From contig NZ_AP012273.1 of the NCBI RefSeq assembly GCF_000828615.1, positions 1,798,001 to 1,862,000 of the forward strand: a stretch of 64,000 nucleotides of DNA. Direction: 5' to 3'. This document shows, piece by piece, positions 50,164-59,631 of the stretch (its first letter is position 1; every line of letters begins with the position of its first letter). The notes beneath the pieces are model-generated. The model ran no database searches, was not told where the DNA came from, and saw only the letters and a list, made by a program, of their open reading frames with translations. This DNA is from Thiolapillus brandeum (GTDB taxonomy: Bacteria > Pseudomonadota > Gammaproteobacteria > Chromatiales > Chromatiaceae). The position numbers and the translations under genes are program-made.

Positions 50164-50916
50164 ATGCTTTTTGCCATGAAGCCCTATCACCTGCCAAAGT
50201 CATTGCAGCCCATTCTGGACAGCCTGCGCGACCTCTTTCCCATCGTGCTGGTGGTGAGCATTTTTCAGTTGCTGGTCATCCGTCAGCCTTTGCCAGACTA
50301 CAGGGATCTGCTGCTGGGCGTTTTATTTGTCGCCATCGGTCTGAGCCTGTTCGTCAAAGGCCTGGAAATGGGGCTTTTTCCCATCGGCCAGTCCATGGCC
50401 CAGTCCTTTGCCCGCAAGGGCAGCCTGGCCTGGTTGCTGCTGTTTGCTTTTGCCCTGGGGTTTGGCACCACGGTGGCCGAGCCCGCCCTGATCGCCATTG
50501 CCGAAGAGGCATCAGAAATCGCCGCGGCCGGAAACCTGATTCATGGATCTGCCGACGCCATGGAAAGCTACGCCCGCGGACTGCGCTACACGGTGGCTCT
50601 CTCCGTGGGCCTGGCCATTGTGCTGGGTGTCATCCGCATCCTCAGAGGCTGGCCCATACACTGGCTGATCGTGGGTGGCTATGTGTGCATTATTGCCATT
50701 ACCGAATTCGCGCCCCGGGAGATCATCGGCATCGCCTACGATTCGGGCGGCGTGACCACTTCTACCATCACGGTACCCCTGGTGACTGCACTGGGCGTGG
50801 GATTGGCCGCTTCCATCAAGGGACGCAATCCCATGATCGATGGCTTCGGCCTGATTGCCTTCGCCTCACTCACGCCCATCATGTTCGTCATGATCTACGG
50901 GATGATCGTTCATTGA
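50164..50916 (+). CDS. DUF1538-family membrane protein, first subunit
   Basis: A 250-residue polytopic membrane protein (239-250 by start; ATG 50164 or 50176, no clear Shine-Dalgarno). About six to seven helices. Recognisable DUF1538 blocks: [84 protein letters not shown] and [13 protein letters not shown]. The family is of unknown function; the small-residue-rich FGTTVAEP and YDSGGVTT loops look like re-entrant or ligand-binding segments. Paired with a second DUF1538 protein, a PII-like protein and a CBS protein in one operon. Confidence 0.85.
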
Positions 50917-51692
50917 ACATACTCTCAGGCCTTCTGTATACCGGGTTGAGCACCATTTTGGATGTGCTGCCCATTGCAGTGATTATCTTCGGTTTCCAGT
51001 TTCTGTATCTGAAGCGCCCCATCCCCAACATGAAAAAGGTTCTGCTGGGTTTTGCCTATGTACTTATCGGGCTGGCTTTTTTTCTGGAGGGACTGGAACT
51101 GGCACTGTTTCCGCTGGGAAAGACCATGGCCGCACAGCTCACTGACCCCGATTTTCTGGGCATAGCAAATCCGGCAGACATCCACTGGTCAGACTATTAC
51201 TGGGTCTATGCCTTTGCCTTTGCCATCGGCTTTGCAACGACGGTTGCAGAACCGGCCCTGCTGGCCGTGGCCATCAAGGCCAACGAGGTATCCGGCGGCG
51301 CCATCGGAATCTGGGGATTGCGTACCGCTGTCGCCCTGGGTGTTGCCCTGGGACTGGTGCTGGGCACCTGGCGCATCGTCACTGGCTATCCCCTGCACTG
51401 GTTTATTATCGGCGGTTATGTGGTGGTGGTGATTCAGACGATATTTGCGCCCCGCATGATCATCGCCCTGGCGTATGATTCCGGCGGCGTGACCACATCC
51501 ACCGTTACCGTACCACTGGTTGCGGCACTCGGCCTGGGACTGGCCCACAATATCCCCGGCCGCAGCGCCCTCATCGACGGCTTCGGCCTTATCGCCTTTG
51601 CCAGCCTGTTTCCCATGATAACCGTCATGGCCCATGCGCAAATTGCACACTGGCGGGCAGGCAGAAAACCTTCACCTTCTCTGGAGAACTGA
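50913..51692 (+). CDS. DUF1538-family membrane protein, second subunit
   Basis: A 259-residue paralogue of the gene before it, aligning along its length: [87 protein letters not shown] and [15 protein letters not shown]. The only sensible start is TTG 50913, overlapping the previous stop as TTGA, so translation is coupled. The extra [15 protein letters not shown] loop is absent in the first subunit. The pair probably forms a heterodimer in the inner membrane. Confidence 0.82.
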
Positions 51693-51693
51693 C

Positions 51694-52044
51694 ATGCACT
51701 TCAAACTCGTTGTTGCCTTTGTCGAGGATCACAAGACCGAACCCGTAATGCAAGCCGCCCGGGAAGCGGGCGCCACCGGTGCAACCATCATCAACAACGC
51801 CCGCGGGGAAGGCCTGAACACCAGCAAGACCTTTTTCGGCCTGTCCCTGGAAACCCAGAGAGACGTGCTGATGTTTCTGGTGGAAGAACACATGGCGCGG
51901 GAGATTCTGGAAACCATTGCCGAAGTTGGTGAATTCGAGGCCAAACCGGGCACGGGCATCGCCTTTCAGATCGACGTGGAAGATGCCGTGGGCATCAGCC
52001 AGCAACTCAATGTACTGAAAGAAAAAGTTAAGGAGGAAGTATGA
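51694..52044 (+). CDS. PII-like signalling protein of the DUF1538 operon
   Basis: A 116-residue ferredoxin-like fold protein of the GlnB/PII superfamily, starting at ATG 51694, one base after the previous stop. FKLVVAFVEDHKTEPVMQAA is the first beta-alpha unit and GATGATIINNARGEG leads into the T-loop region; the late KPGTGIAFQIDVEDAVG corresponds to the B-loop and final strand of PII proteins. The modifiable tyrosine of classical GlnB/GlnK is absent from the T-loop segment (LNTSKTFFGLSL), so control is more likely by nucleotide binding than by uridylylation. It probably regulates the adjacent membrane pair. Confidence 0.78.
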   Translation: MHFKLVVAFVEDHKTEPVMQAAREAGATGATIINNARGEGLNTSKTFFGLSLETQRDVLMFLVEEHMAREILETIAEVGEFEAKPGTGIAFQIDVEDAVGISQQLNVLKEKVKEEV

Positions 52045-52454
52045 CAGAACGTAAACTGATCCGGGTTCGGGAGGTCATGAAAACGCACTTCGACATGGTC
52101 AACGGCATGGCCACGGTGGCGGAAGCACTGGAACAAATGAAACATGTGGAAACCAAGTCCCTGATCGTGGACAAACGCCAGGACGACGATGAATACGGCA
52201 TGGTGATGCTGTCCGACATCTCCCGGCAGGTGCTGGCCCTGGATCGATCACCCGAAAGAGTCAATATCTACGAAATCATGAGCAAGCCAGTGATCTCCAT
52301 CGACCCCGAGATGGATATACGTTACTGCGCCCGCCTGTTCGAGCGTTTCAACATCAGTCGTGCTCCCGTGGTGGACAACAGAAAGATCATTGGCATCGTC
52401 AGCCACACAGACATGGTGTTGCGGGGCATGGAAAAGCTCCAGAAGAGAAACTGA
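52041..52454 (+). CDS. CBS-domain-pair protein of the DUF1538 operon
   Basis: A 137-residue protein made of two CBS motifs: VREVMKTHFDMVNGMATVAEAL...SLIVDKRQDDDEYGMVML (about 8-60, quoted in part) and YEIMSKPVISIDPEMDIRYC...APVVDNRKIIGIVSHTDMV (about 75-130). CBS pairs (Bateman modules) bind AMP, ADP, ATP or related ligands and regulate partners. Its ATG overlaps the PII-like stop by 4 bp. With the PII-like protein it gives the operon two adenine-nucleotide-type sensors. Confidence 0.85.
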   Translation: MTERKLIRVREVMKTHFDMVNGMATVAEALEQMKHVETKSLIVDKRQDDDEYGMVMLSDISRQVLALDRSPERVNIYEIMSKPVISIDPEMDIRYCARLFERFNISRAPVVDNRKIIGIVSHTDMVLRGMEKLQKRN

Positions 52455-52474
52455 TTTTTTGCTCACACAAAAAA

Positions 52475-52501
52475 GGGCGCCCGCAAACTGCCAGGGCGCC
52501 C
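52475..52501. terminator. Probable terminator between convergent genes
   Basis: GGGCGCCC at 52475-52482 and again at 52494-52501 can pair across an 11-base loop; an A run precedes the stem, giving a T run for the minus-strand transcript of the multicopper genes. Confidence 0.6.
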
Positions 52502-52519: not shown

Positions 52520-53581
52520 TTATACCACAGTAATACGTGTTCGGGCCGTACCCAGCACTTCACCGGTTACCCAATGCAGGATATCGGCTGAAACTATGTA
52601 CTCACCTGGCTGGGTTGGCTCAAAAATAATGTCGTAGCGCTCCGCCGAATGCGCACGCAGGCTCTGTACCTGAACCGGATTTGGCAACGCACGGCCATCG
52701 GACATATGTATCGTCCCGGTCAATCCACCAAAGTCCAGGCGCTGGGGATGGTAGCCCGCACATATATAGCGCGCCAACAGCTTTTCGCCCACCTGTACCG
52801 TCGCCGCGATGCCCGGCGCCGTCAGCGCAGACTGGGCGCCATCAACACCGGTGATGATGAAGTAATCCGGGTTCAGATCATTCAGTCCCACATCGGCACC
52901 ACAGGTTCCCGCCGTCCAGCCCAGGGTGTGCCAGTATGAATCAATTTCATCAACTGCCCAGACGACTTCCTGATCATAGTCAGGACCGCCGGAATAAAGC
53001 ACCCCGGGTCCTTCCGGTGGATCGATGATCAGGGCACCATACATGCCCATCTCGGCATGCAATACCGTATTGGTATGACAATGATAAAAGTAGGTGCCCG
53101 CATGACTGGCTTTCCACTGGTAAGTATAGGTGCGAGAGCTGACATCCCAGGTGAGATGCCCTACCCCATCACTGTACTTGTCCGGTTCGATACCATGGTG
53201 ATGGATGGTGTGGGCGCAGCACATGGGAACAGACAGATTGGTGTGTACAATCTGCCCCTCGGTAACCCGGATGGCAGGCGACGGAAAGCTGCCTCCCATG
53301 CCCATCCTCATGCCGCCACCTTCAGTGAAACCCCAGATCCTGACGGTTGTTCCGTCATCCATGGTCATACTGCCGTTCATGTAGATACCCCGGTTGAAGG
53401 TAACATCGGCATCGACCAGCCGGGGATTGGACTGCTGATTTTCATCATAGATATAGCAGCCGCCTCCCATGCCGCCGCCTCCCATGCCGCCACCGCCCGT
53501 GCCGCCTCCATCACCATCGCGACCGCCCCAAAAACCACCACCCATTCTCATGGCATTCTTTGATGCATCTCTTCTGGACAT
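52520..53581 (-). CDS. Multicopper oxidase-like protein with HCH copper motif, no export signal
   Basis: A 353-residue cupredoxin protein. After MSRRDASKNAMRM comes a Gly-rich run with Met (residues about 14-42), then cupredoxin domains. Copper-type motifs are HTIHHHGIEPD (T2/T3-like HxH) and GTYFYHCHTNTVLHAEMGMYG (T1 Cys, His and Met plus T3 His). The second domain ends ILHWVTGEVLG without such a motif. No signal peptide is visible, and only 13 bp separate it from the previous stop, with GAGGAGGT as ribosome site. Substrate could be Cu(I), Mn(II), phenols or sulfur compounds; it cannot be told. Second gene of a two-gene unit. Confidence 0.85.
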   Translation of the reverse strand: MSRRDASKNAMRMGGGFWGGRDGDGGGTGGGGMGGGGMGGGCYIYDENQQSNPRLVDADVTFNRGIYMNGSMTMDDGTTVRIWGFTEGGGMRMGMGGSFPSPAIRVTEGQIVHTNLSVPMCCAHTIHHHGIEPDKYSDGVGHLTWDVSSRTYTYQWKASHAGTYFYHCHTNTVLHAEMGMYGALIIDPPEGPGVLYSGGPDYDQEVVWAVDEIDSYWHTLGWTAGTCGADVGLNDLNPDYFIITGVDGAQSALTAPGIAATVQVGEKLLARYICAGYHPQRLDFGGLTGTIHMSDGRALPNPVQVQSLRAHSAERYDIIFEPTQPGEYIVSADILHWVTGEVLGTARTRITVV

Positions 53582-53594
53582 TCTGACCTCCTCC

Positions 53595-54596
53595 TCACTC
53601 GAAAAATATGTCGGTCAGGGCACCGAACATGTAATAACCACCCGCAGCCGTCTGCGACATTTCGGAATGCAGGTGCATGGGGTATGTCCCCACATCCGTG
53701 GGTGGCCAGGCATCCGGTGGCGTCTCGAAAGGATAGATAACATCCAGCGCTCCCATGTTGCCATCCAGGAAGATACAATCCTTTTTCCAGACATCCGGGC
53801 GAATCACGCCGTTCTGCGTCAGCCACTCCATGTGGTTGCCATGGGTATGCACGGATTGGGCGCACATGCCTGCATTGAGAATGCGCACCAGGGAACGGTC
53901 ACCCACATGGCCATGCAGCGCCGTACGGGGGTCGTGCATGGCATCCTGCGCCGGATCACCACTGCCAGGCGCTCCCGGCGGCCTCCCTCCAAGCCCGTTG
54001 ATGGTGAAGTAACGAGGCACATAATCGGTGTTTGGCGTCAGACCACGGCGCAAACGGTCATGCCAGGCGGGATCGATATCGTGGAATATCCAGAAATACT
54101 GCTGAACAAAGGTGGGACTGCCCGGATAGAGTTCATCACTGGAACCTGAAGGCATGACAGCCAATCCACCATGGAGCCCCAACAAACGGTTATGGGGCGC
54201 ATTCAGCTTGTCGTAGTACATATAGGTTCCAGGAGTCGTCACGGTGAAGCGCACAGTTCGCGTCTCACCCGCAGGAACACTGCCGCTGTCAACAACCCCG
54301 TCGATGACAAAACTGTGCGCGGATGACAAGGTATTCACCAGCGTAATTTCTACAGTATCTCCCTCCTGTACGATCAGTGCCTCACCAGGGATATCCAGCG
54401 TATCGCTGTTGCTACTGAAACCTCTGAAATAGACCGACGAACCGTCGATCTGATCAATAAACCCTTCCGTAATGTAGAAAGTACGGCTGATCACGGCAGC
54501 ATGACTGCGTGGCGTCCAGGACAGCAATCCCATGCCTCCCAGCATGGTGCTCACACAGCCTGCGCTCCCGAGTCTTAAAAAGTCACGGCGTTTCAA
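53595..54596 (-). CDS. Tat-exported cupredoxin / multicopper oxidase-like protein lacking the T1 cysteine
   Basis: A 333-residue protein, read from TTG 54594-54596, which lies 9 bases after AAGGAGG; an upstream ATG at 54656 gives 353 residues but ignores this strong site. The Tat signal is LKRRDFLRLGSAGCVS. Domain one ends PGTYMYYDKLNAPHNRLLGLHGG where a T1 site would have Cys; domain two has CAQSVHTHGNHMEWLT and PMHLHSEMSQTAAGGYYMFG, that is HLH rather than HCH. T2/T3-like histidines remain, but the T1-to-trinuclear cysteine bridge is missing. It is the first gene of the unit and divergent from a Crp/Fnr regulator. Confidence 0.85.
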   Translation of the reverse strand: MKRRDFLRLGSAGCVSTMLGGMGLLSWTPRSHAAVISRTFYITEGFIDQIDGSSVYFRGFSSNSDTLDIPGEALIVQEGDTVEITLVNTLSSAHSFVIDGVVDSGSVPAGETRTVRFTVTTPGTYMYYDKLNAPHNRLLGLHGGLAVMPSGSSDELYPGSPTFVQQYFWIFHDIDPAWHDRLRRGLTPNTDYVPRYFTINGLGGRPPGAPGSGDPAQDAMHDPRTALHGHVGDRSLVRILNAGMCAQSVHTHGNHMEWLTQNGVIRPDVWKKDCIFLDGNMGALDVIYPFETPPDAWPPTDVGTYPMHLHSEMSQTAAGGYYMFGALTDIFFE

Positions 54597-54715
54597 TGAA
54601 AGAATCCTCCTTAGTGGATATATTGCTATATGTATACCTGTTGTTTTCTCCGGCATTCGCCGGACTGTCCTTCCCTGGTAGAGCCTTACTCTAGTGTCTT
54701 GCTGAAAACCCTTCA

Positions 54716-54957: not shown

Positions 54958-55674
54958 ATGGCGCATTCCATACACGACCCGGCTTCCGACAGGAACCTTT
55001 CGTCAAACAGCAAAATGCTGTTTGACGTATATCCGGAACTGAACCAGCCCGACAACCTTCCCTGGCTGGAATTGCTGGAACGTGCAACATTCATCGACCT
55101 GCCAGCCCAGAACACCCTGGTCCGACAGGGCACTAGCTGCAACAACTTCCTGTTTTTACTCGATGGCGCGGTGCGTGTGTATCAAATGGCCGAAGACGGC
55201 AGGGAAATGACCCTCTACCGTATCAACCCCGGCGACATCTGCCTGATGAGCCTGAGCAGCCTGTTGAACGACAAACCATTCAAGGCCAACGCCAGGACAG
55301 ACACCCCCATCAAGGCGCTGGTACTCAGTGTCAGGGATTTCCACCTGGCCATGAAAGTCAGTGACAGTTTTCGCAACCAGGTATTGCGCAGCCTGGTGAA
55401 CAGTGTCTGCGAGATCATGCACAGCTTTTATGACACGGCTTTCGAGCCCCTGGAACTGCGTTTGGCCTGCCTGCTCGGACACATGTTCGAACGATCCCAT
55501 TCCGACACGCTGGACGTCACCCACCAGCAGCTTGCCATGGAACTGGGCACATCCCGCGAAGTGATCAGCCGGATTCTGAAACGCCTTGAGAAACAGCAGT
55601 GTATTACCCTGTCCCGGGCTCAGATCAAGGTTGGTCCTGCACAGAACCTGCCATGGCAGCCCCAGGGGGGCTGA
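54958..55674 (+). CDS. Crp/Fnr-family regulator without cluster cysteines
   Basis: A 238-residue Crp-superfamily protein. The N-terminal cNMP-like barrel has NTLVRQGTSCNNFLFLLDG and VYQMAEDGREMTLYRINPGD. The C-terminal helix-turn-helix is VTHQQLAMELGTSREVISRIL, with the S-R-E-V-I-S-R recognition helix of the family. There is no FNR-type CX2CX5C, so it is not an oxygen-sensing FNR; it might read cyclic nucleotide, NO/heme or redox state. The divergent multicopper genes and the palindromes between them make that unit its likely target. The fold is clear, the ligand is not. Confidence 0.85.
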   Translation: MAHSIHDPASDRNLSSNSKMLFDVYPELNQPDNLPWLELLERATFIDLPAQNTLVRQGTSCNNFLFLLDGAVRVYQMAEDGREMTLYRINPGDICLMSLSSLLNDKPFKANARTDTPIKALVLSVRDFHLAMKVSDSFRNQVLRSLVNSVCEIMHSFYDTAFEPLELRLACLLGHMFERSHSDTLDVTHQQLAMELGTSREVISRILKRLEKQQCITLSRAQIKVGPAQNLPWQPQGG

Positions 55675-56029: not shown

Positions 56030-59000
56030 CTACTGCAGATTGAATGTCCGCACCAGGAACACGGCCATTTCTCCCCGGGTAACTTCTCCCGAGGGGCAGT
56101 AGTTTCCGCCACCGCATCCTGAGGTAATTCCCTCTGATACCAACTGTTCTATCCAGGCCGCAGCCCAATAGCTGAGCGGCACATCGGCAAACTCGGTACC
56201 AGTGGCAGGTGGCGGTGAGTATGCTTCACCATGTTCTGCACGCAACAGAAATACCGCCATCTCGGCTCTTGTGGAATTGTTTTCCGGACAAAAATTGCCC
56301 GCACCACAACCACCAGTGATTCCATCAGCCGCCAGCTGTTCTATCCAGTTGGCGGCCCAATGATCTTGAGCTACATCATTGAAAACAGTGCCTGAGGCCG
56401 GTGGCGGCACGTAGCTGCTGCCATGCATACCCCGTTCCAGGAATACGGACATCTGCGCCCGGGTTACCGTATTGTCAGGGCAGTAGTTGTCTCCGCCACA
56501 TCCATGGGTTATGCCATTGGCCACCAGGGTTTCAATGAAGTCATAGGACCAGAAATCCGGCGGCACATCCGCAAAAGTCTGCTGGTAGGGATGATAGATA
56601 CCAATATTTCGATAACGTCCACCACCCCAGACAAGCATTTCCGCCCCCGTCCAGAGCGCTGAATGATCAACCCTGCCCACTGGAGCGCCAAGGGTGCTGG
56701 TCGTCAACCAGGTATCCGTCTGGGGATCATAGCGGCCTCCTGTGTTGACATAATTATTGCCATCATCTCCGCCCCAGACAACCATCTCACTGCCCGTCCA
56801 GACGGCTGTATGCTGTCTGCGGTTACTCGGAGCATTCGTTGTTCCGGTAGCTTGCCAACTATCAGACTGAGGATCGTAGCGCCCACCGGTGTTCACATAA
56901 CCACTGCTGCCGCCTCCACCCCATATGATCATTTCGGTGCCAGTCCACACCGCTGTATGTTGATAGCGTCCTGCAGGCGCACCCGCCAGGGTGGTTTCAG
57001 TCCAGGTATCGGTGAGGGGATCATAACGACCACCAGTATCAACATTGATGTACTCTTCCTGGCCTCCCCAGATGATCATTTCACTACCCGTCCATACGGC
57101 CGTAGGGTAATCCCTCTTGCCCGGAGCATTTGTCTGGCTGACAGCCGTCCAGCTGTCCGTAGCCGGATCGTAGCGCCCGCCGGTATTGATCGCCAATCCG
57201 GCATGACCACCCCAGACAATCATTTCTGTCCCCGTCCAGACCACAGTAGCCGAACCTCTTCCTTCAGGGGCATTCAGGAGTGCTGTCGATTGCCAACTGT
57301 CGGTCAGGGGATTGTAACGTCCACCGGTATTCGTCACCTGGTAGTATCTGTCGATTCCGCCCCAGACGACCATCTCGATCCCGGTCCAGACAGCAGAATG
57401 ATAGGCCTTCTCATTGGGAGCATATGTGGTGGTGGTTTCCAGCCAGGTATCGGTCACGGGGCTATAACGGCTACCCGTATTGACAACCTCATCATCCATT
57501 CCACCCCAGATGATCATCTCGTTGCCGGTCCAGACGCCGGTCTGTCCCCGCCTTCCGGTAGGCCCTGTGGGTTGCCTGGTTTCGATCCAGCTGTCAGTGG
57601 TCGGATCGTAACGCCCTCCGGTATATCCACTTGAAGGATCGCCACTTCGTCCTCCCCAGACAATCATTTCACTCCCTGTCCAGACAGCCGTATGCAGTGT
57701 TCTCTGGTTGGGCGCTCCTGCTGTACTGGTTGAAGTCCAACTGTCCGTGGAAGGATCATAGCGACCACCAGTGTTTTCAATGACTGCGCCGGAACCACCC
57801 CAGACAATCATCTGATTACCTGTCCATATGGCACTGTGGAAGTATCGACCGGATGGTGCATCATTCAGGCTGGTAGCCGTCCAGCTGTCCGTGGAAGGGT
57901 CGTAGCGGCCACCGCTGTTTAAATAACCACCGCCGTATCCACCCCAGACAATCATCTCATTGCCTGTCCAGACAGCCGTATGCCTGTTTCTTCCAGCAGG
58001 CGCATTGACACTGCTGGTGGCTGTCCAGGTGTCTGTGGAGGGATCATAGCGCCCCCCGGTATTGGAAACACCTCCCCCCCAGACAATCATTTCGCTGCCT
58101 GTCCATACCGCCGCGGGATTTTGTCCTCCCACAGGCGCACCGGCAACGGTGGTGGCAACCCAGGTATCGGTGGCAGGATCGTAGCGGCCTCCAGTATTCA
58201 AGTCATTGTTGCCGTCATAGCCACCCCAGACAATCATCTCGCCATCTGCCCATACCAGTGTATGGTCGGCTCTTGCGCCGGGAACTCCCGTAGTACTGGT
58301 AGCCATCCAGGTATCAGTAGCCGGATTGTAGCGTCCTCCGGAATTCAGCACGGAGTCATCACTGGAGTCATTCAGGCCACCCCATACGATCATTTCACTC
58401 CCTGTCCAGACTGCCTTGTGCTTGTATCGCGCTACAGGGGCGCCTGTAGTATTGATTGGGTGCCAACTATCCGTCACGGGAAGATACCGCGCACCACTGT
58501 TGGTATAGTTGTTGGCATTATCCTGGCCGCCCCAGACAATCATCTCGTTGCCTGTCCAGACAGCCGTGTGCATTTTCCGGCCCTCAGGCACGTAACCCGC
58601 CGACAGGCTCCAGCTGTCTGCAGGAACAGGCCCGGCCACCTCAGGCAAACTGAGAGCATTCCCAGTCACTTCAGGTAGGCGAAACCCGTTCAGCGCAGGA
58701 GCATGCCACTTTGGTTTCAGATGGCTTTTTCTGTGCTTCCACCAATCACCGAAGGCCTGTTCGTGCCCGGTCTGTAGAGCATTTCGTCCATGCCTATAGG
58801 CGTCATGAAGCAGTTTCTTGGCCATGGTTGGGCGAACCAGACACTCTGCTACGGCAGCGGGATCATTCCCCAGTACCGAAAACAGTTCCCTGAGGCGATC
58901 CGGAGCACGGGTATGGGCTGCCATACGATCCATTTCCGTCTGCAACTTCTTCTGATCCAGAATAATCCCAAAATCTTCGCCCAATACCTCTTCCATGGCC

Positions 59001-59263
59001 AACGCATCTTCCACCCTGGTACGCAGCCGGGTATCACTCAGTATCTGCCTGCGCGATGGTTTGGGGCCGGGGTTGGCTTCCGGCCATATTTGATAGGACC
59101 AATTGATGTCCTCTACAAGCTGTTGACAGGCAACCCGCTGTTCCAGGGAAAAACTTTTGGGGGAAGCAGCACCCGCCAACAGAACAGCCGGTAGCAGCAA
59201 TAGAAACCCTGTAAGAAAAAAAATTCCTGAAAAACAGATCGAGGGAGAAAATCTTGTGTTCAT
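56030..59263 (-). CDS. Large secreted protein with 14 kelch-type repeats and three SLH-like domains
   Basis: A 1077-residue exported protein. Residues 1-33 are a signal peptide (IFFLTGFLLLLPAVLLAG). A helical domain (about 35-200) contains CQQLVEDINWSYQIW and LRELFSVLGNDPAAVAECL. Residues about 225-890 hold 14 kelch-type units of 45-50 residues built on GR-x2-HTAVWTGxEMIVWGG and NTGGRYDPxTDSW. Fourteen equals two seven-bladed propellers. The last 190 residues are three SLH-type units with the cysteine-paired GIT-x-GC-x5-YCP loop and RAEMAVFLLR helix. I chose ATG 59261-59263. It resembles surface adhesins or glycan-binding propellers; the ligand is unknown. Confidence 0.85.
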   Translation of the reverse strand: MNTRFSPSICFSGIFFLTGFLLLLPAVLLAGAASPKSFSLEQRVACQQLVEDINWSYQIWPEANPGPKPSRRQILSDTRLRTRVEDALAMEEVLGEDFGIILDQKKLQTEMDRMAAHTRAPDRLRELFSVLGNDPAAVAECLVRPTMAKKLLHDAYRHGRNALQTGHEQAFGDWWKHRKSHLKPKWHAPALNGFRLPEVTGNALSLPEVAGPVPADSWSLSAGYVPEGRKMHTAVWTGNEMIVWGGQDNANNYTNSGARYLPVTDSWHPINTTGAPVARYKHKAVWTGSEMIVWGGLNDSSDDSVLNSGGRYNPATDTWMATSTTGVPGARADHTLVWADGEMIVWGGYDGNNDLNTGGRYDPATDTWVATTVAGAPVGGQNPAAVWTGSEMIVWGGGVSNTGGRYDPSTDTWTATSSVNAPAGRNRHTAVWTGNEMIVWGGYGGGYLNSGGRYDPSTDSWTATSLNDAPSGRYFHSAIWTGNQMIVWGGSGAVIENTGGRYDPSTDSWTSTSTAGAPNQRTLHTAVWTGSEMIVWGGRSGDPSSGYTGGRYDPTTDSWIETRQPTGPTGRRGQTGVWTGNEMIIWGGMDDEVVNTGSRYSPVTDTWLETTTTYAPNEKAYHSAVWTGIEMVVWGGIDRYYQVTNTGGRYNPLTDSWQSTALLNAPEGRGSATVVWTGTEMIVWGGHAGLAINTGGRYDPATDSWTAVSQTNAPGKRDYPTAVWTGSEMIIWGGQEEYINVDTGGRYDPLTDTWTETTLAGAPAGRYQHTAVWTGTEMIIWGGGGSSGYVNTGGRYDPQSDSWQATGTTNAPSNRRQHTAVWTGSEMVVWGGDDGNNYVNTGGRYDPQTDTWLTTSTLGAPVGRVDHSALWTGAEMLVWGGGRYRNIGIYHPYQQTFADVPPDFWSYDFIETLVANGITHGCGGDNYCPDNTVTRAQMSVFLERGMHGSSYVPPPASGTVFNDVAQDHWAANWIEQLAADGITGGCGAGNFCPENNSTRAEMAVFLLRAEHGEAYSPPPATGTEFADVPLSYWAAAWIEQLVSEGITSGCGGGNYCPSGEVTRGEMAVFLVRTFNLQ

Positions 59264-59631
59264 AGTACACCTCATAGAGCAAACATAACCCACAACTCCC
59301 GCCAGGAAGGCCGGTTCTGATCATTCCGGGGAAATGCCGTCAGGGCTCAAAAGGGCAAGGCTGTTGGAAACATCTCTACGACATGATTCAGAGTGAACCT
59401 TACTGATCCAACTCCATCCTAGATCAGATAGTCTATTGTCATACTGTCCTGGATCAACGCTTCTACAGTATTGGCCCGGCTACCACTGTTGCCACCGGAA
59501 TCCACTGCCACAAGGCAGCCGGACGAATGAAGCAGGACATGCTACTATCGCGTCCGCAAAATTCAGGACAACAACCATTATTTCGATTCCCCTTTGGCAA
59601 ACCTGCCCACATTCCATTGATCCCGGCACCC
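59264..59631. other. Divergent spacer between the kelch-SLH gene and tex
   Basis: About 370 bp without a supported gene; the in-frame extension of tex from 59527 is not family-like. It should hold the two promoters. A loose inverted pair CTGATC (59404-59409) and GATCAG (59423-59428) is noted. No terminator or riboswitch-like structure was recognised. Confidence 0.35.

What the first reader, a model, noticed from the sequence alone, without database searches (positions are those of the whole stretch)
52520..54596. Two-gene multicopper unit: Tat signal on one protein, copper HCH motif on the other
The upstream protein has a clear twin-arginine signal but HLH where the T1-linking cysteine should be. 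The downstream protein has HCH...H...M but no export signal and begins with a Gly-rich stretch just 13 bp after the first stop. A simple reading is a heteromeric enzyme in which the Tat partner carries the signal-less, copper-loaded subunit across the membrane (hitchhiker export) and contributes extra metal sites.
Basis: partly seen in the sequence, partly recalled or inferred. Interest (0 to 1): 0.55.

Follow-up and report, generated by a model that had tools for sequence, protein, structure and literature searches.

The report
Two-protein copper oxidase sharing one signal
Two neighbouring bacterial genes appear to make a copper enzyme whose active site is split between two proteins, only one of which carries an export signal, so the pair probably crosses the membrane together already folded.

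Summary
P1 (window 54596-53595, minus strand, TTG start) has a Tat signal. P2 (53581-52520, minus) has none, starts 13 bp after P1's stop and is Gly-rich at its N-terminus.
The pair is a conserved unit. Of 80 P2 places examined, 69 hold two complete genes; all 69 show RR-x-F-[LIM] on P1, and no convincing signal lies in P2's frame.
Both proteins are degenerate two-domain multicopper oxidases with complementary losses. P2 domain 1 keeps the type-1 site plus four trinuclear-cluster histidines; P1 domain 2 keeps the other four. In 97 aligned rows neither chain keeps more than one of its partner's four. So P1 does not add extra sites: it supplies half of the same cluster.
A tethered AlphaFold model (pTM 0.87) places the chains like ceruloplasmin residues 1-697.
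Signal-less P2 occurs only beside Tat-type P1; where P1 shows a non-Tat signal, P2 has its own (12 of 12 seen), but this rests on about two evolutionary changes.
Hitchhiker export of an obligate heteromer is the best reading. The substrate is unproven; Cu(I) is favoured by nearby CusBA-type genes in 19-21 of 65 loci.

The parts
53595..54596 (-). P1: Tat-signal two-domain multicopper-oxidase-like subunit (333 aa from TTG 54596; 353 aa if ATG 54656)
   Evidence: ORF; Pfam Cu-oxidase_3 1e-9; SD at TTG; start agrees with homologues
54576..54593 (-). twin-arginine motif K-R-R-D-F-L of P1
   Evidence: RR-x-F-[LIM] in 69 of 69 complete homologous pairs
54210..54212 (-). Asp149 of P1, at the place of the type-1 Cys in domain 1
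   Evidence: Asp in 97 of 97 P1 rows; 70 of 70
53832..53849 (-). P1 domain 2 half-site: H270-T-H272-G-N-H275
   Evidence: 70 of 70; aligns with domain-2 HxHG of 3g5w/2zwn
53667..53675 (-). P1 domain 2 half-site: H328-L-H330
   Evidence: 70 of 70; aligns with HDH of 2zwn
53582..53594 (-). 13-bp gap between the genes with Shine-Dalgarno GGAGGAGG
52520..53581 (-). P2: signal-less two-domain multicopper-oxidase subunit with type-1 site (353 aa)
   Evidence: Pfam Cu-oxidase_3 5e-16; best PDB sequence match 3g5w 3.3e-20
53459..53545 (-). Gly/Met-rich N-terminal tail of P2 (residues 13-41), no h-region
   Evidence: leads of 75 main-clade P2 have median 12-aa hydropathy 0.22 against 1.68 for P1
53456..53458 (-). 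Cys42 of P2, invariant; with Cys227 (52901-52903) a possible disulfide (inference)
   Evidence: 70 of 70 each
53195..53212 (-). P2 domain 1: H124 (T1), H127 (T2), H129 (T3)
53042..53083 (-). P2 domain 1: H167-C168-H169 ... H175 ... M180 (T3, T1, T3, T1, T1 axial)
52469..52501 (-). intrinsic-terminator-like hairpin GGGCGCCC...GGGCGCCC-TTTTTT after P2
   Evidence: read from sequence
54958..55674 (+). divergent Crp/FNR-type regulator next to P1
   Evidence: Pfam cNMP_binding and HTH_Crp_2; relatives near the pair in 13 of the other 68 loci

Best explanation
P1 and P2 are the two subunits of an obligate heteromeric multicopper oxidase. They descend from a type-C two-domain oxidase (type-1 copper in domain 1) by duplication and complementary loss. 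P2 domain 1 holds the type-1 copper and four histidines of the type-2/type-3 trinuclear cluster, and P1 domain 2 holds the other four, so one complete cluster can form only where P1 meets P2. P2 has no signal. It folds and binds P1 in the cytoplasm and is carried through the Tat translocase by P1's signal (hitchhiker export). In the periplasm electrons from the substrate enter at P2's type-1 copper and reduce O2 to water at the shared cluster. Shown by sequence: pairing, complementary ligands, Tat motif on P1, no convincing signal on P2. Predicted: the interface. Inferred: descent by duplication and loss, hitchhiking, O2 reduction, and Cu(I) or another metal ion as substrate (less sure, about 0.45).
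For: Adjacency: 69 complete pairs among 80 P2 places in 79 loci, P1 partial or P2 cut in 4 more, contig end in 5. Co-occurrence over 369 class genomes: P2 in 24, P1 in 23, 22 shared; of the three unshared two lie at contig edges and one is a weak single-gene oxidase. Ligands over 97 rows: all four D1 trinuclear His in 96 P2 and 0 P1; all four D2 His in 96 P1 and 0 P2; no chain keeps more than one of the other half; T1 Cys in 97 P2 and 0 P1; two single-gene relatives hold all. Tethered in-frame pair: pTM 0.87, whole model on human ceruloplasmin 4enz 1-697, Z 26.4, rmsd 4.0 over 509; a second, Sec-type pair pTM 0.79 with whole-length Foldseek matches to ceruloplasmin (TMq 0.59-0.62). Signals: Tat/none 78, Tat/own 1, non-Tat/own 14, non-Tat/none 0 of 93. 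TatC is in the genome. P1-P2 distance matrices correlate r 0.84, which shared descent alone can also give.
Against: No direct evidence of binding, export, metal content or activity. The signal pattern rests on about two label changes on the tree, so it is not 93 independent tests; signals of divergent P2 were judged by eye, and in 2 of the 14 non-Tat P1 (L146, L171) the N-terminus is cut off by the contig end. Tethering may favour contact, AlphaFold may recall ceruloplasmin, and no unrelated-pair control was run. One Tat-type pair (L102) has a P2 with its own signal; a P2 of G036 (L128) also has an RR signal. A plasmid P1 homologue (Paenarthrobacter pTC1, L182) has no P2 beside it. Two P2 pieces with upstream DNA lack P1 (L068, L076; both P2 truncated or broken). 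The window itself has no Cus genes next to the pair.
Confidence: 0.78

Rival explanations
1. P1 is a Tat-exported metallochaperone or folding helper ('caddie') that carries and loads P2, as MelC1 does for tyrosinase MelC2; P2 alone is the enzyme.
For: Same gene order and signal split as melC1-melC2 (PMC2758597, passages).
Against: No P2 of 97 rows keeps more than one of the four domain-2 trinuclear histidines, while 96 of 97 P1 keep all four; P1 is itself an oxidase-fold protein.
Confidence: 0.1
2. P2 stays in the cytoplasm and works there alone, P1 works in the periplasm.
For: P2 has no signal.
Against: Complementary half-sites; sister-family P2 proteins carry Sec-type signals, so the protein works outside the cytoplasm there.
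Confidence: 0.06
3. P2 reaches the periplasm by its own unusual N-terminus or another route, and then pairs with P1.
For: P2 of the window starts MSRRDAS, many P2 tails are Gly/Thr-rich, and four main-clade P2 frames hold an RR-like pattern (L028, L048, L066, L099).
Against: Some homologues have almost no tail before the core (MSDACYVYP, MNDNNTTCYIYP); the RR-like patterns are not followed by a hydrophobic stretch and are not shared.
Confidence: 0.06

Closest known systems
Type-C two-domain multicopper oxidases: Nitrosomonas europaea blue copper oxidase (PDB 3g5w) and metagenomic mgLAC (2zwn)
   Same: P2 is nearest to them by sequence and, as a single unit, by fold (Z 26.0 and 25.6); T1 in domain 1; in two-domain oxidases the cluster forms between domain 1 and domain 2 of neighbouring chains (PMC3918160, PMC6854816 passages).
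   Different: Those are homotrimers with all ligands in one chain; here the ligands are divided between two genes, each with one degenerate domain.
Ceruloplasmin and six-domain oxidases (MnxG, algal ferroxidases)
   Same: Model aligns with ceruloplasmin 1-697, about its first four domains (domain borders recalled); bacterial and algal six-domain proteins also place the cluster between domains 2 and 3 (PMC3600357 passages).
   Different: Single six-domain chain; the mononuclear sites of the bacterial ones are in domain 2 (same passages), here the T1 is in the third domain (P2 domain 1).
Streptomyces MelC1/MelC2 (tyrosinase and its Tat caddie)
   Same: Bicistronic; upstream gene has the Tat signal, downstream copper enzyme has none and hitchhikes (PMC2758597 passages).
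   Different: Unrelated fold and copper site (recalled); MelC1 does not supply ligands of the active site in the same way (recalled).
Tat hitchhikers PaoABC and HybOC
   Same: Signal-less subunits carried by a Tat-signal partner (PMC4273604 abstract and passages).
   Different: Molybdenum (PaoABC) and nickel-iron (HybOC, recalled) enzymes; not copper oxidases.
CueO / PcoA / CopA (Tat-exported copper-resistance oxidases)
   Same: Tat signal (recalled for these), oxidase fold, likely copper setting.
   Different: Three-domain single chain; P2 and P1 score far below the TIGR01480 cut-off (76.7 and 31.4 against 478.95 bits).

Membership tests
Type-C two-domain multicopper oxidase | two cupredoxin domains per chain | tested here: met
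Type-C two-domain multicopper oxidase | complete T1 site (His, Cys, His, Met) in domain 1 | tested here: met
   P2 H124, C168, H175, M180 all 70 of 70; not met in P1 (Asp at the Cys place)
Type-C two-domain multicopper oxidase | all eight trinuclear histidines in one chain (homotrimer) | tested here: not met
   four in P1, four in P2
Type-C two-domain multicopper oxidase | cluster at a domain 1 / domain 2 interface between chains | tested here: inconclusive
   arrangement predicted; distances not measured
Tat hitchhiker pair | one subunit with a Tat signal | tested here: met
   69 of 69 complete pairs by motif; library signal models below cut-off for the window's P1
Tat hitchhiker pair | partner without any signal | tested here: met
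   of 77 main rows two were flagged by hydropathy (L022, L031) and four by an RR-like pattern (L028, L048, L066, L099), none judged a signal
Tat hitchhiker pair | partner's export depends on Tat and on the signal-bearing subunit | not testable with these tools
   needs a bench test
Six-domain oxidases (ceruloplasmin) | single chain of six domains | tested here: not met
   two chains of two domains each
Three-domain copper-resistance oxidase (TIGR01480 CopA/PcoA, CueO) | score over the curated cut-off | tested here: not met
Copper nitrite reductase NirK (TIGR02376) | score over the curated cut-off (296.3) | tested here: not met
   52.4 (P2) and 30.7 (P1) bits

The most novel reading that the evidence does not exclude
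A multicopper oxidase family in which duplication and reciprocal decay have divided one trinuclear active site between two genes. The complex can be assembled only before export and crosses the membrane through Tat on a single signal. Related three-gene arrays (T1/half-site subunit, half-site subunit, ligand-free subunit) are the same idea taken to a ceruloplasmin-like six-domain ring built from three chains with a single cluster.
Probability: 0.6. Interest if true: 0.75.

Novelty: new variant of a known kind. Interest (0 to 1): 0.62.

Why it matters
If true, it is a natural split-active-site oxidase: neither gene product alone can hold the cluster, so assembly, quality control and export must be coupled. 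It gives a clean system for asking when a trinuclear copper cluster is filled relative to Tat export. It also shows, in living bacteria, a possible intermediate between homotrimeric two-domain oxidases and single-chain six-domain ceruloplasmin. It would sharpen the annotation of genes now called 'multicopper oxidase domain-containing protein' or 'hypothetical protein'.

Tried and rejected
Known families (CopA/PcoA, CueO, NirK, laccase, ascorbate oxidase, nitrosocyanin) were scanned and scored below their cut-offs. Stop read-through as a biological route to a fusion was rejected: the gap is not held in one frame (29, 16 and 24 of 69 in the three frames). The first ORF script framed four P1 genes wrongly (L006, L013, L018, L048); corrected. 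A phylum-wide search (398 genomes) returned only the window's own genome at E 1e-25, so it told little about spread; searches scored at most five candidates per genome. Viral contigs, metagenome contigs, phage records and E. coli genomes were not searched. In one search ceruloplasmin is not among the 50 rows shown for the second model, which single-unit matches fill; the Foldseek run lists it. The best Foldseek row for both models is a snake-venom factor V chain (4bxs). Papers: the ten searches (open-licence PMC only) listed no paper whose title or abstract start describes this pair; two searches returned none. A paper in a subscription journal could have been missed.

Rows dropped: from 99 distinct rows, 97 entered the ligand table and 93 the tree; those left out have a truncated P1 or P2. 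L144 and L155 are one pair, so the 97 rows hold 96 distinct pairs. L130 is counted as Tat/none although its P1 ends differently and its P2 start is unclear. L146 and L171 are counted as non-Tat although P1's N-terminus is not in view.

Full report
What is there. On the minus strand of the window lie two genes of similar size. P1 runs from 54596 (TTG, Shine-Dalgarno AAGGAGG; an ATG at 54656 is possible) to 53595, and P2 from 53581 to 52520. The 13 bp between them hold P2's Shine-Dalgarno GGAGGAGG, and a terminator-like hairpin follows P2. P1 begins (L)KRRDFLRLG followed by a hydrophobic stretch. P2 begins MSRRDASKNAMRMGGG and has no hydrophobic core. Pfam calls both multicopper oxidases; NCBIfam gives no family over its cut-off. 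The genome has a TatC and, elsewhere, another multicopper-oxidase ORF of 659 aa.

Is it conserved? A scan of one genome per species gave 79 loci with a P2 relative, the best 80 of 93 confirmed stretches being kept. Counting L065's two copies, 80 P2 places were examined. 69 had both genes complete; in 4 more P1 was present in part or P2 was cut (L007, L019, L046, L080); in 5 the contig ends first (L005, L054, L071, L073, L077); and 2, both with a truncated or broken P2, had upstream DNA but no P1 (L068, L076). In 69 of 69, P1 carries RR-x-F-[LIM]. The script used this motif to place P1's start; no pair lacked it. The gap is -1 to 87 bp, median 14, and 58 of 69 are 20 bp or less. In 369 genomes of the class, P2 was found in 24 and P1 in 23, with 22 shared; the exceptions are G317 (P2 at a contig edge with stops), G334 (a weak match to a single-gene oxidase) and G326 (P1 at a contig edge). 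Record titles name, among many unnamed gammaproteobacterial MAGs, Sedimenticola, Thiogranum, Thiobacillus denitrificans, Nitrosomonas communis, Thioalkalivibrio, Gallionellales and one Sulfurimonas.

No signal on P2. In 77 main-clade rows, the reading frame from 20 codons before P1's stop to the conserved CYxY was tested for hydrophobic stretches. The median 12-residue hydropathy is 0.22 against 1.68 for P1 leads (75 rows). Two rows passed 1.2: L022 (1.22, MSKILRPVFMM) and L031 (2.07), whose stretch lies upstream of P2's likely ATG, over the end of P1. Four rows hold an RR-like pattern without a hydrophobic stretch (L028, L048, L066, L099). Some P2 proteins begin almost at the core (L064 MSDACYVYP, L052 MNDNNTTCYIYP), which leaves no room for an N-terminal signal.

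Complementary active site. In 75 main-clade and 22 divergent rows (96 distinct pairs) aligned with two single-gene relatives, the eight histidines expected for a trinuclear copper cluster are split. P2 has all four of domain 1 in 96 of 97 rows (one His is Asn) and the type-1 Cys and both type-1 His in 97 of 97. P1 has none of the four in 85 rows and one of them in 12, never more; the Cys place is Asp in 97 of 97. P1 has all four of domain 2 in 96 of 97 (one row, L130, ends early). P2 has none of those four in 91 rows and one in 6, never more (two cells per column are gaps). Profile alignment to solved structures agrees: P1 domain 2 falls on the HxHG of 3g5w and 2zwn and the HxH of 2zwn, P2 domain 1 on HTIHWHG and HCH. 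The single-gene relatives L134 and L173 carry all eight. The labels T1, T2 and T3 follow general knowledge of multicopper oxidases. P1's domain 1 keeps a His at the first T1 place (82 of 97 rows), the invariant Asp and an Asn (67 of 70); whether this binds metal is unknown.

Predicted complex. In 29 of the 69 pairs P1 and P2 are in the same frame, so the natural DNA read through P1's stop gives a tethered chain; 28 were aligned. AlphaFold2 on that paired alignment gave mean pLDDT 85.8 and pTM 0.87 with a disordered linker. The whole model (2-659) aligned with human ceruloplasmin residues 1-697 at Z 26.4, rmsd 4.0 over 509 residues, and the P2 half with 3g5w at Z 26.0. So P1 and P2 sit like four consecutive domains of the ceruloplasmin ring (domain borders recalled), with P1 domain 2 against P2 domain 1. 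A second model from a Sec-type pair, about 35% identical, gave pTM 0.79. Foldseek again matched ceruloplasmin and factor V over the whole chain (for ceruloplasmin TMq 0.59-0.62, rmsd 6.5-7.2); the 50 VIA rows shown are single-unit matches. The arrangement is a prediction from a tethered chain, without an unrelated-pair control and without distances. Published six-domain oxidases of algae and bacteria place the cluster between domains 2 and 3 (PMC3600357, passages), and homotrimeric two-domain laccases place it between domain 1 of one chain and domain 2 of the next (PMC6854816, passages).

Test of the hitchhiker idea. Tat carries folded proteins, so a signal-less partner should occur only beside a Tat-type carrier. 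Among 93 complete rows on the P2 tree: P1 Tat / P2 none 78, P1 Tat / P2 own signal 1 (L102, RR plus lipobox), P1 non-Tat / P2 own signal 14, P1 non-Tat / P2 none 0. P2's own signals were judged by eye. 'Non-Tat' means no twin-arginine motif was found; a Sec-type or lipoprotein signal is visible in 12 of these 14 P1, and in L146 and L171 the contig begins inside P1. Two alphaproteobacterial plasmid pairs add Tat/none (L177, L178, by eye). The tree needs only two changes of label, so this is a consistent pattern rather than many independent events. It does show that P2's relatives are exported proteins. Direct precedent: in Streptomyces melC1-melC2 the upstream protein has the Tat signal and the signal-less tyrosinase hitchhikes (PMC2758597, passages); PaoABC and HybOC are others (PMC4273604, abstract and passages).

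Function. Of 65 loci (the window included) with at least 1 kb after P2, 21 have a CusA- or CusB-type efflux gene in the fetched DNA by protein clustering and 19 by a separate tblastn check, which missed L017 and L020. In 13 of these CusB starts 4-126 bp after P2 on the same strand (families of two representatives). The 13 fall in one clade of the tree, while L020, L023, L060, L061 and L074 have CusA-like genes in the opposite direction. The window itself has no such neighbour; its neighbours are a divergent Crp/FNR-type gene (relatives also near the pair in 13 of 68 other loci), and a P-II, a CBS and a UmpA-like antiporter gene. A periplasmic metal oxidase, most likely for Cu(I), is the best guess; it is inferred, not tested.

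Verdict. A conserved, two-gene, split-active-site multicopper oxidase exported on one Tat signal: a new variant of a known kind. The searches of open-licence papers listed in Tried and rejected showed no description of it.

Noticed in passing
Looks like ceruloplasmin's three two-domain units as three chains.
   Followed up: partly
L179 1993-4406 (Arthrobacter sp. FW305-BF8 plasmid): P1's frame runs on into the start of P2 and then the frame breaks inside P2 domain 1, the likely trace of a natural P1-P2 fusion; annotated as two overlapping genes.
   Followed up: partly
L182 3865-5445 (Paenarthrobacter aurescens pTC1): P1 homologue annotated 'Tat domain protein' with no P2 beside it, in a stretch with an mntH gene and cytochrome-biogenesis genes.
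   Followed up: no
window 54210-54212 (P1 Asp149) and H114, N156, H162: Invariant Asp at the place of the type-1 cysteine with conserved His and Asn around it: a possible third, non-blue metal site or a proton relay; unexplained.
   Followed up: no
L065 3898-8534: Two tandem P1-P2 pairs (P1 90%, P2 85% identical) in one gammaproteobacterial MAG.
   Followed up: no
window 50164-52454, plus strand: UmpA/UmpB-like antiporter domain (below cut-off), a P-II-like protein and a CBS-domain protein in a row, converging on the pair.
   Followed up: no
window 56030-59293, minus strand: 1087-aa protein of many 'VWTGSEMIVWGG ... GGRYDPxTDSW' Kelch-like repeats with SLH-like repeats at the C-terminus (names from recall).
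   Followed up: no
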